A stretch of 30,578 nt of DNA from a virus. Position numbers and translations under genes: made by a program. The stretch is from positions 1-30,578 of the IMG/VR virus record IMGVR_UViG_3300032236_001189, one strand, 5' to 3'. The notes beneath the pieces were generated by a model. It saw only the letters and a program-made list of their open reading frames with translations, made no database searches and was not told the DNA's origin. Below are positions 10,264-11,708 of the stretch, in pieces (positions within the stretch are counted from its first letter, which is position 1; every line of letters starts with the position of its first letter).

Positions 10264-10611
10264 CTACTCAGATTCTTGACTAGCTTTCTCAGCTTTGATA
10301 GCTTTTTTCTTTTCTTTAAATTCTTTGGCTAGATTCATCTCGCTCTTATTTTTAGAGTGGACGGTCTTCACTCTTTCTGGTCGAAAACTACGAATGCAAG
10401 CAGCACCCTTAGGTCCACCCCATACGTCAATCCATTGAACACCAGCTTCAGTGGTTACATGTTTGATGAAGTTAAATCGACCACGCTCGCCAGAGATTTT
10501 GAGCTCAGTTCCTTTAACTACGTTTCTCCCGTTGATTTGCATCTCGGTAAGAATTATCCATTTAGCGTCAGGCCGCGGTGCAGCGGGGACGGAAGATTTC
10601 TTTTTTGCCAT
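10264..10611 (-). CDS. Hypothetical basic protein
   Basis: A 115-residue protein that starts MAKKKSS and ends in a lysine/glutamate-rich helix (EFKEKKKAIKAEKASQ). The middle (WIILTEMQINGRNVVKGTELKISGERGRFNFIKHV, then WIDVWGG) looks like a small SH3/KOW-like barrel with an RGRF loop, of the kind that binds nucleic acid or ribosomes. No ribosome site is visible; TATCTT lies exactly six bases before the ATG, so the mRNA is probably leaderless. It lies just after the terminator of the large non-coding RNA. Confidence 0.66.
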   Translation of the reverse strand: MAKKKSSVPAAPRPDAKWIILTEMQINGRNVVKGTELKISGERGRFNFIKHVTTEAGVQWIDVWGGPKGAACIRSFRPERVKTVHSKNKSEMNLAKEFKEKKKAIKAEKASQESE

Positions 10612-10646
10612 AGTTGTAAGATAGCATACACTACCGACACTTAAAC

Positions 10647-10675
10647 AAAAAACCCACCTCTTGCGAGATGGGATT
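10647..10675 (-). terminator. Intrinsic terminator of the structured ncRNA
   Basis: CCCATCTC pairs with GAGGTGGG (one G-U) around a GCAA tetraloop and is followed by six T on the minus strand. Confidence 0.9.
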
Positions 10676-10851
10676 TAGTGTGAGTAGATGGGTTGCGTTT
10701 TACCACCAATGCGTCGCCACCAGGTTCTCTAGCGCTTACTCGCATACTTGCCGTTAGGTTATCAGCCCAGTTGATTAGACCCGACAATGCTTTCTCCCTG
10801 TTGGCACAGAGATTCAGCCATACTCCATCTGACTTGCAATTCAGATGTTTG

Positions 10852-10924
10852 AGCAAATGGATGGATTCGAACCACCTCTGCCAGTCAGGGGAAACTGGCG
10901 TTCTTCCTATTGAACTACATTTGC
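10852..10924 (-). tRNA. tRNA-Gly with eight-base anticodon loop (CCCC)
   Basis: Acceptor GCAAATG/CATTTGC, D-arm GTTC/GAAC, T-arm GGTGG-TTCGAAT-CCATC and discriminator T are regular; G1-C72, C2-G71 and U73 match bacterial tRNA-Gly identity. The anticodon stem CCAGT/ACTGG leaves an eight-base loop, TTCCCCTG, one C more than a normal CCC loop. The same change makes the classic sufD frameshift suppressor, which reads GGGG. CCA is not encoded. It lies inside the large structured RNA. Confidence 0.85.
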
Positions 10925-11222
10925 AGGTTCACTCTAGTTGAACACGGAACTTCCGTTATCGCATCTATGCCTAGAGTGAGGGGTGAGTATGAGGATTCCA
11001 CCTCAATGAGCGGGCAACCATTTGGATTCATTAAATCCGCTCAACCACAAGTTGTCTGCTAAGACAAACAATTTGCTGACCGCTAAATCAGCTAGGCTCT
11101 GAAGCTAACCATTTGGCATTGCTTACCAGAACTTAAGTTGTTCCTCGTGTGCGTTAGGACTGCGTTTGCTACAGCCACATTCCGCCATACTCCAAGCTTC
11201 CCGTCGGAACCTTGTTGCTTAT

Positions 11223-11252
11223 AGTCTAACAAACCTTTTATCACTTTGTCAA
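11223..11252 (-). promoter_or_regulatory. Consensus promoter of the structured RNA
   Basis: Minus strand: TTGACA (11252-11247), 18-bp spacer, TAGACT (11228-11223). It lies in a 60-bp AT-rich gap after tRNA-Asn and predicts a start near 11216. Confidence 0.8.
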
Positions 11253-11280
11253 GTTAAAATAAAAAAATTTTTTAGACTCG

Positions 11281-11353
11281 CTGCCTCACCTGGACTCGAA
11301 CCAGGAACCTTGGAGTTAACAGCTCCCTGCGCTGCCGATTGCGCCATGAGGCA
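11281..11353 (-). tRNA. tRNA-Asn (anticodon GTT)
   Basis: Acceptor TGCCTCA/TGAGGCA, D-arm GCGC/GCGC, anticodon loop CTGTTAA closed by GGAG/CTCC, T-arm CCTGG-TTCGAGT-CCAGG, discriminator G. CCA not encoded. It follows the tmRNA by four bases, so they may share a precursor. Confidence 0.93.
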
Positions 11354-11357
11354 TTAG

Positions 11358-11708
11358 TGGAGATGGGGGGAGTCGAACCCCCGTCCTGAAAGGTTTATAT
11401 GTTCTTCTACACGCTTAGGCAGTTTATATTTTCAAGACCGAACTGCCACATCTTGTGGTGCTTGAGTTTTACATCTCCAGCATTGATGTTGTTGCCATAG
11501 TTGTTCTCTTTATTTGAAACCTAGATGCTCAGCGAGAACTACTGCTTTTCTAGGGGCAAATGCGCTTCTTCTTTACGAATAAAGATTAGGCAGCAAGAGC
11601 GAATGCAGAACGTGATTCAGCATTTATTTTTGCGGTGGGTTCAAGAGATACCACCATCTCTGCGTGCTTCACCATACTAAAGTCTCCCAGTCGAAACCAG
11701 GCATCCCC
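11358..11708 (-). ncRNA. ssrA: tmRNA (ssrA)
   Basis: The tRNA-like ends pair as GGGGATG with CATCTCC. The third pair is G-U, the alanine identity element, and the discriminator is A. The 3' T-arm is GGGGG-TTCGACT-CCCCC and the 5' part reads CTGGTTTCGACTGGG, both typical of tmRNA. The tag reading frame (11633-11586) encodes AKINAESRSAFALAA and then TAA; ALAA is the usual protease-recognition end. At about 351 nt the length is normal. It would rescue stalled ribosomes and tag their products. CCA is not encoded. A weak TATACT lies upstream. Confidence 0.95.

What the first reader, a model, noticed from the sequence alone, without database searches (positions are those of the whole stretch)
10647..11216. 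A large structured non-coding RNA with a tRNA-Gly inside it, its own promoter and terminator
Seen: promoter TTGACA-18-TAGACT, about 570 gene-free bases, four or more perfect stems, a 16-base motif on both sides of the tRNA (15 of 16 identical) and a terminator with GCAA loop and six T. Known: giant ornate RNAs such as GOLLD and ROOL occur in phages, often beside or around tRNA genes. Inference: this is a member, or a new class with the same plan, and the two motif copies build matching domains on both sides of the tRNA.
Basis: partly seen in the sequence, partly recalled or inferred. Interest (0 to 1): 0.87.

Follow-up and report, generated by a model that had tools for sequence, protein, structure and literature searches.

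The report
Twin manA-type RNAs around a phage tRNA
A phage carries a small gene unit in which a glycine tRNA sits between two copies of a structured RNA of the manA family; relatives show that this RNA, filed as a regulatory leader of metabolic genes, is usually a free-standing RNA slotted between tRNA genes.

Summary
On the minus strand, TTGACA-18-TAGACT, about 570 gene-free bases, a tRNA-Gly, a 16-base motif on both sides (15/16 identical) and a GCAA-loop terminator are all present.

It is not GOLLD or ROOL. The 3' flank matches Rfam manA (RF01745) over its full length (E 4e-10, below the curated cut-off). The 5' flank is a longer, divergent relative that Rfam misses. A covariance model built from 23 manA RNAs finds it full length (54 bits, E 4e-15), and counterparts occur in Microbacterium and Curtobacterium phages. 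The motif is the shared 5' core of both RNAs. Covariation is strong (35 of 37 pairs change on both sides).

In 37 manA-type loci the RNA abuts a same-strand tRNA (within 5 nt) in 15 cases (0.3 expected). In 11 it is sandwiched between two tRNAs, including cyanophages whose flanking tRNAs are partly unannotated. Elsewhere its ends coincide with a promoter start and a terminator. This fits a free RNA released by tRNA processing better than the published 5'-UTR cis-regulator. So the 570-nt transcript is probably a precursor of RNA + tRNA + RNA, not one ornate RNA. A trans role in translation or counter-defence is inferred, not shown. In Photobacterium it is not beside a tRNA.

The parts
11223..11252 (-). 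sigma-70-type promoter: -35 TTGACA 11252-11247, 18-nt spacer, -10 TAGACT 11228-11223; predicted start about 11216
   Evidence: Sequence. Score 10/12 at the offset seen before stand-alone manA RNAs, shuffle p = 0.02.
10983..11218 (-). 5' manA-family RNA, 'type B' (236 nt): P1 hairpin, outer stem GAGUA/UACUC, P3, P4, enlarged P5 with two UUAGC(G/A)-loop hairpins, P6, P7
   Evidence: Full-length hit to model R1, 54.4 bits, E 3.7e-15, not in its training set; alignment with Microbacterium and Curtobacterium phage RNAs, 30 of 51 pairs changed on both sides; single-sequence fold gives the same plan. No RF01745 match of its own.
10929..10979 (-). linker hairpin between the 5' RNA and the tRNA (UCACUCUAG/CUAGAGUGA outer stem, inner ACGGAAGUUCCGU)
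   Evidence: Sequence and fold; conservation not tested.
10851..10924 (-). tRNA-Gly gene with 8-nt anticodon loop UUCCCCUG, no encoded CCA
   Evidence: ARAGORN; Rfam tRNA 55.3 bits. U73 and C2-G71 agree with glycine identity (own knowledge).
10680..10851 (-). 3' manA RNA, 'type A' (172 nt), starting directly at the tRNA 3' end
   Evidence: RF01745 at 10846-10677, 44.5 bits, model 1-192, E 3.8e-10, below the gathering score of 55.2; R1 121 bits (this copy is in R1's training set).
10647..10676 (-). intrinsic terminator starting 3 nt after the 3' manA RNA
   Evidence: 10 of 16 manA loci tested have one within 8 nt (0.29 expected).
11280..11708 (-). tRNA-Asn (11353-11280) and tmRNA (11708-11357) just upstream on the same strand: context, separated by a T-run and the promoter
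10264..10611 (-). downstream conserved 115-aa gene, used to fetch relatives; a possible leaderless promoter precedes it
   Evidence: promoter read by eye.

Best explanation
This is a compact non-coding transcription unit: promoter, manA-type RNA (B), tRNA-Gly, manA-type RNA (A), terminator. Shown by computation: both flanks are manA-family structured RNAs, and the unit has a promoter-like site at its 5' boundary and a terminator at its 3' boundary. Inferred: one precursor of about 570 nt is transcribed; RNase P and tRNA 3'-end processing cut out the tRNA and thereby release two separate, stably folded manA-type RNAs. These act in trans as stable RNAs of the phage's tRNA/tmRNA island rather than as a leader controlling a downstream gene. 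The most likely arena is translation during infection: supporting phage translation, or blocking or decoying host enzymes that attack tRNAs. That last step is a hypothesis (about 0.35).
For: Identity: full-length RF01745 hit for the 3' flank; R1 hit for the 5' flank; 97.5% of cells paired against 39-43% when slid, 35 of 37 pairs with double changes, 0 of 500 shuffles. Specificity control: 236 kb of unrelated viral DNA gave only a 12-bit fragment. Free-standing nature: in 37 manA-type loci, 15 lie within 5 nt of a same-strand tRNA (0.33 expected), 11 on both sides, 26 within 200 nt (5.06 expected), none near an opposite-strand tRNA. Sandwiched cases include cyanophages S-CREM1, ACG-2014f and S-H68/S-B43, Rhodococcus phage Francesca and Microbacterium and Curtobacterium phages. 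Where no tRNA precedes, a -10 box usually ends 4-5 nt before the RNA; where none follows, a terminator usually starts 2-3 nt after it (10 of 16, 0.29 expected). The same boundaries set by interchangeable means point to a free RNA with defined ends.
Against: No expression data. Photobacterium manA RNAs (6 of 297 Vibrionaceae genomes) are not beside a tRNA and keep one place upstream of a 91-aa gene and an SPFH gene, so a cis role is possible there. Several phage loci have no recognised tRNA nearby (L033, L035, L046, L062, L069, L039). The 3' copy scores below Rfam's cut-off and the 5' copy is not found by RF01745. Twelve loci were retrieved with a motif shared with the window, and 37 loci are not 37 independent events.
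Confidence: 0.72

Rival explanations
1. Cis-regulator: the manA RNA is a riboswitch or attenuator, as published, that controls the terminator at 10647 and so the 115-aa gene (or controls the tRNA operon).
For: manA is classed as Cis-reg in Rfam and described as lying in 5' UTRs (PMC2864571). In the window a terminator and a gene follow directly. P7 3' strand and terminator 5' strand share CCCAUCU, which could allow alternative pairing. Photobacterium copies keep a fixed gene neighbourhood.
Against: In 11 loci the RNA is followed directly by a tRNA, not by an mRNA. Its downstream neighbours differ from locus to locus. Terminator sequences vary while the P7 5' strand stays GGUGG, and the minimum-energy fold forms manA and terminator together. 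In ACG-2014f the RNA is parted from the oxygenase gene by a tRNA-Asn missing from the record's annotation.
Confidence: 0.15
2. One large ornate RNA of about 570 nt with an embedded tRNA, working like GOLLD or ROOL (for example forming a homo-oligomeric cage).
For: One promoter and one terminator for the whole unit; tRNA inside; GOLLD and ROOL lie near phage tRNA islands and GOLLD linkers may hold tRNAs (PMC12286853).
Against: No GOLLD or ROOL match. Each flank is a closed domain that occurs alone in relatives. No supported pairing joins the two flanks. The tandem arrangement was seen in this window only.
Confidence: 0.08
3. tRNA-processing aid: the manA folds are spacers or insulators that help fold, protect or process the neighbouring tRNAs, without a function as free RNAs.
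For: Tight abutment to tRNAs; in L034, L041, L044, L084 and L085 unrecognised tRNA-like ends in CCA abut the RNA.
Against: About ten loci have the RNA with its own promoter and terminator, some with no tRNA nearby. Conservation of loop sequences and covariation far exceed what a spacer needs.
Confidence: 0.12

Closest known systems
manA RNA (Rfam RF01745; Weinberg et al. 2010, PMC2864571)
   Same: Full-length match of the 3' copy and of most relatives; same helix order (P1, outer stem, P3/P4, P5, P6, P7) and conserved core GGAGU..GGCUGAAU..UAAGGC.
   Different: Described as a 5'-UTR regulator of mannose, nucleotide and photosynthesis genes; here two copies flank a tRNA, with their own promoter and terminator. 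The 5' copy has an enlarged P5 and GGCGGAAUG in place of GGCUGAAUAA.
manA of Bifidobacterium megaplasmid pMP7017 (PMC10832533)
   Same: manA inside a tRNA array with a tmRNA, 16 nt after tRNA-Phe. The paper states that manA can lie next to tRNAs.
   Different: A single copy, 138 nt before the next tRNA, still called a cis-regulator there.
GOLLD and ROOL RNAs (PMC12286853)
   Same: Structured phage and prophage RNAs beside tRNA islands, function unknown.
   Different: Much larger, different sequence and structure; no Rfam hit here.
Phage tRNAs that escape tRNA-targeting defence (PMC10264068; PMC11555353)
   Same: Same genomic setting; the tRNA here has an altered anticodon loop.
   Different: Those are tRNAs only; no link to manA RNA has been shown.

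Membership tests
manA RNA (RF01745) | Covariance-model match over the full model | tested here: met
   3' copy: model 1-192, E 3.8e-10. The 5' copy gives none but matches R1 over 1-185, E 3.7e-15.
manA RNA (RF01745) | Score at or above Rfam's gathering cut-off (55.2 bits) | tested here: not met
   3' copy 44.5 bits, 5' copy no hit. Close relatives with the same neighbour gene pass: L005-L007 give 64.5-67.8 bits. Hence filed as 'manA-type', not as a curated member.
manA RNA (RF01745) | Shared secondary structure supported by covariation | tested here: met
   Both window copies aligned with 30 others: 97.5% paired, 35 of 37 pairs with double changes. The alignment was fitted to the model, so the count leans its way; MAFFT alignments A3 and A1 agree.
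manA RNA (RF01745) | Lies in the 5' UTR of a protein gene (published cis-regulatory role) | tested here: not met
   5' copy precedes a tRNA; 3' copy is closed off by a terminator; across relatives mostly tRNA neighbours or own terminator. This counts against the role, not against the fold.
GOLLD / ROOL | Covariance-model match | tested here: not met
   No match up to E 10 in 10600-11290, both strands.
GOLLD / ROOL | Large homo-oligomeric RNA assembly | not testable with these tools
   Needs native gels or cryo-EM.
tRNA-Gly | Cloverleaf, glycine identity elements, anticodon NCC in a 7-nt loop | tested here: inconclusive
   Cloverleaf met. Loop has 8 nt, UUCCCCUG; relatives have UUUCCAA with anticodon UCC.

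The most novel reading that the evidence does not exclude
manA RNA is not primarily a riboswitch-like leader but a trans-acting phage RNA that travels as a cassette in tRNA/tmRNA islands and is released by the tRNA-processing machinery. The window shows two divergent subfamilies of it paired around a tRNA with a rebuilt anticodon loop, possibly as part of a defence against tRNA-targeting host enzymes.
Probability: 0.4. Interest if true: 0.78.

Novelty: new variant of a known kind. Interest (0 to 1): 0.62.

Why it matters
manA has been filed for 15 years as a candidate cis-regulator with unknown ligand. If it is a free RNA made by tRNA processing, the search for a ligand and a regulated gene has been aimed at the wrong target, and the question of its function becomes directly testable in cultured phages (Francesca, Pumpernickel, Yappy, S-CREM1). 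It also suggests that phage tRNA islands are stores of structured RNAs beyond tRNAs, with unannotated tRNAs hiding that context.

Tried and rejected
GOLLD, ROOL and all other Rfam families: no match besides tRNA and manA. A single 570-nt fold: rejected because each flank folds and occurs on its own. blastn of the region against phages: only a 47-nt hit to Pumpernickel was useful, the Staphylococcus hits are about 78% over 50 nt at E up to 8. Plasmids by blastn: nothing useful. Type-B pattern scans of IMG/VR gave chance coding matches only, which served as a negative control for R1. The exact anticodon arm of the window tRNA was found nowhere else in IMG/VR. Actinobacterial genomes: 1 weak hit in 396, near a holin-like gene. 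A wrong structure string, an over-long source list, an over-short query and two unusable genome handles cost calls without result.

Full report
What is there. The unit lies on the minus strand of a 30.6-kb phage fragment (virus record), downstream of a tmRNA and tRNA-Asn and upstream of a conserved 115-aa gene.

Identity of the 3' flank. cmscan at gathering thresholds shows only tRNAs and tmRNA. At relaxed thresholds the 3' flank is a full-length manA RNA (RF01745), 44.5 bits, E 3.8e-10, against a gathering score of 55.2. Relatives fetched through the neighbour gene carry a manA RNA above the cut-off 33 nt before a tRNA-Gly at the corresponding place (L005-L007; 64.5-67.8 bits).

Identity of the 5' flank. 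RF01745 does not find it. Model R1, built from 23 manA RNAs with the 5' flank left out, finds it over positions 1-185 with 54.4 bits, E 3.7e-15. R1 gave only a 12-bit fragment in 236 kb of unrelated viral DNA. The nearest counterparts are unannotated RNAs in Microbacterium phages Pumpernickel, Cece, A3Wally and Zooman and Curtobacterium phage Yappy. The Yappy copy also matches RF01745 (E 6e-11), which links the variant to manA. R1 itself finds the A3Wally and Zooman copies but listed neither Pumpernickel, Cece nor Yappy at E up to 1; those were placed by alignment. I call this variant type B: larger P5, core GGCGGAAUG.

Structure. MAFFT-based folds give 27 of 37 pairs with double changes for type A and 30 of 51 for type B. 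On the joint alignment of 32 sequences, 97.5% of cells pair (39-43% when slid), 35 of 37 pairs change on both sides, and no shuffle of 500 comes near. That alignment was fitted to the model, so the count is inflated to some degree. The 5' copy folded alone reproduces the plan, with two hairpins carrying UUAGC(G/A) loops.

Context, the main result. For 37 manA-type loci I measured the distance to same-strand tRNAs and compared it with random placements in the same loci: within 5 nt on some side, 15 seen and 0.33 expected; on both sides, 11 seen; within 200 nt, 26 seen and 5.06 expected; opposite-strand tRNA nearby, none. Sandwiched cases span cyanophages (S-CREM1, ACG-2014f, S-H68/S-B43), Rhodococcus phage Francesca, Microbacterium and Curtobacterium phages and uncultured phages. 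In the ACG-2014f, S-H68 and S-B43 stretches the flanking tRNAs are not annotated, so the RNA looks as if it preceded a protein gene. Where no tRNA abuts, other elements set the same ends: of 16 loci tested, 10 have a terminator starting 2-3 nt after the RNA (0.29 expected), and most loci without an upstream tRNA have a TAnnnT box ending 4-5 nt before it (in several the -35 is poor and the single-locus p is not significant). In L034, L041, L044, L084 and L085 unrecognised tRNA-like structures ending in CCA abut the 5' end.

Interpretation. Fixed ends produced by interchangeable means (tRNA processing, or promoter and terminator) are what a free RNA needs and are not expected of a leader. I therefore read the window as a precursor from which tRNA maturation releases a type-B RNA, a tRNA-Gly and a type-A RNA. 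Transcription, processing and trans action are inferred; nothing was measured. The presence of tRNAs, tmRNA and in S-CREM1 an abiF RNA in the same islands makes a role in translation or counter-defence the best guess, in line with work on phage tRNAs that escape tRNA-targeting defences, but no direct evidence ties manA to it.

Limits. Six of 297 Vibrionaceae genomes carry manA without a tRNA nearby, at one conserved place, with a TATAGT box just before the RNA. A cis or mixed role is possible there. The association of manA with tRNAs has been mentioned before (PMC10832533); the systematic sandwiching, type B and the tandem around a tRNA I did not find in the papers searched, which cover open-licence literature only.

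Noticed in passing
10851-10924: The tRNA-Gly has an 8-nt anticodon loop UUCCCCUG (CCCC); relatives have UUUCCAA (UCC). It could read GGGG, or be insensitive to an anticodon nuclease. The exact arm was not found elsewhere in IMG/VR.
   Followed up: partly
L034, L041, L044, L084, L085, just upstream of manA: tRNA-like structures that ARAGORN does not call, some apparently reduced to acceptor, T arm and one hairpin, end in CCA directly at the manA 5' end.
   Followed up: partly
L058:1150-1300 and L070:1080-1305: A tRNA- or tmRNA-like RNA (T arm plus CCCU acceptor) called by neither ARAGORN nor Rfam precedes manA; a module of about 43 nt (AACAAACGTCCG..AGAGGAAACGGCCC) lies before manA in L070 and after it in L058.
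   Followed up: no
L012:4680-4980: Between tmRNA and the same neighbour gene, where the window has its manA unit, L012 has a different stretch with a promoter-like site and a terminator, possibly another structured RNA. R1 does not match it.
   Followed up: no
L207, L208, L209: The flanking tRNAs of cyanophages ACG-2014f, S-H68 and S-B43 are missing from the annotation of the stretches read.
   Followed up: yes
L205:1246-2144: In S-CREM1 one island holds wcaG RNA, manA RNA, abiF RNA and several tRNAs, so wcaG may deserve the same recheck as manA.
   Followed up: no
L232-L237: Vibrionaceae manA RNAs sit at one conserved place upstream of a 91-aa gene and an SPFH gene, with a TATAGT box at the RNA's 5' end.
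   Followed up: partly
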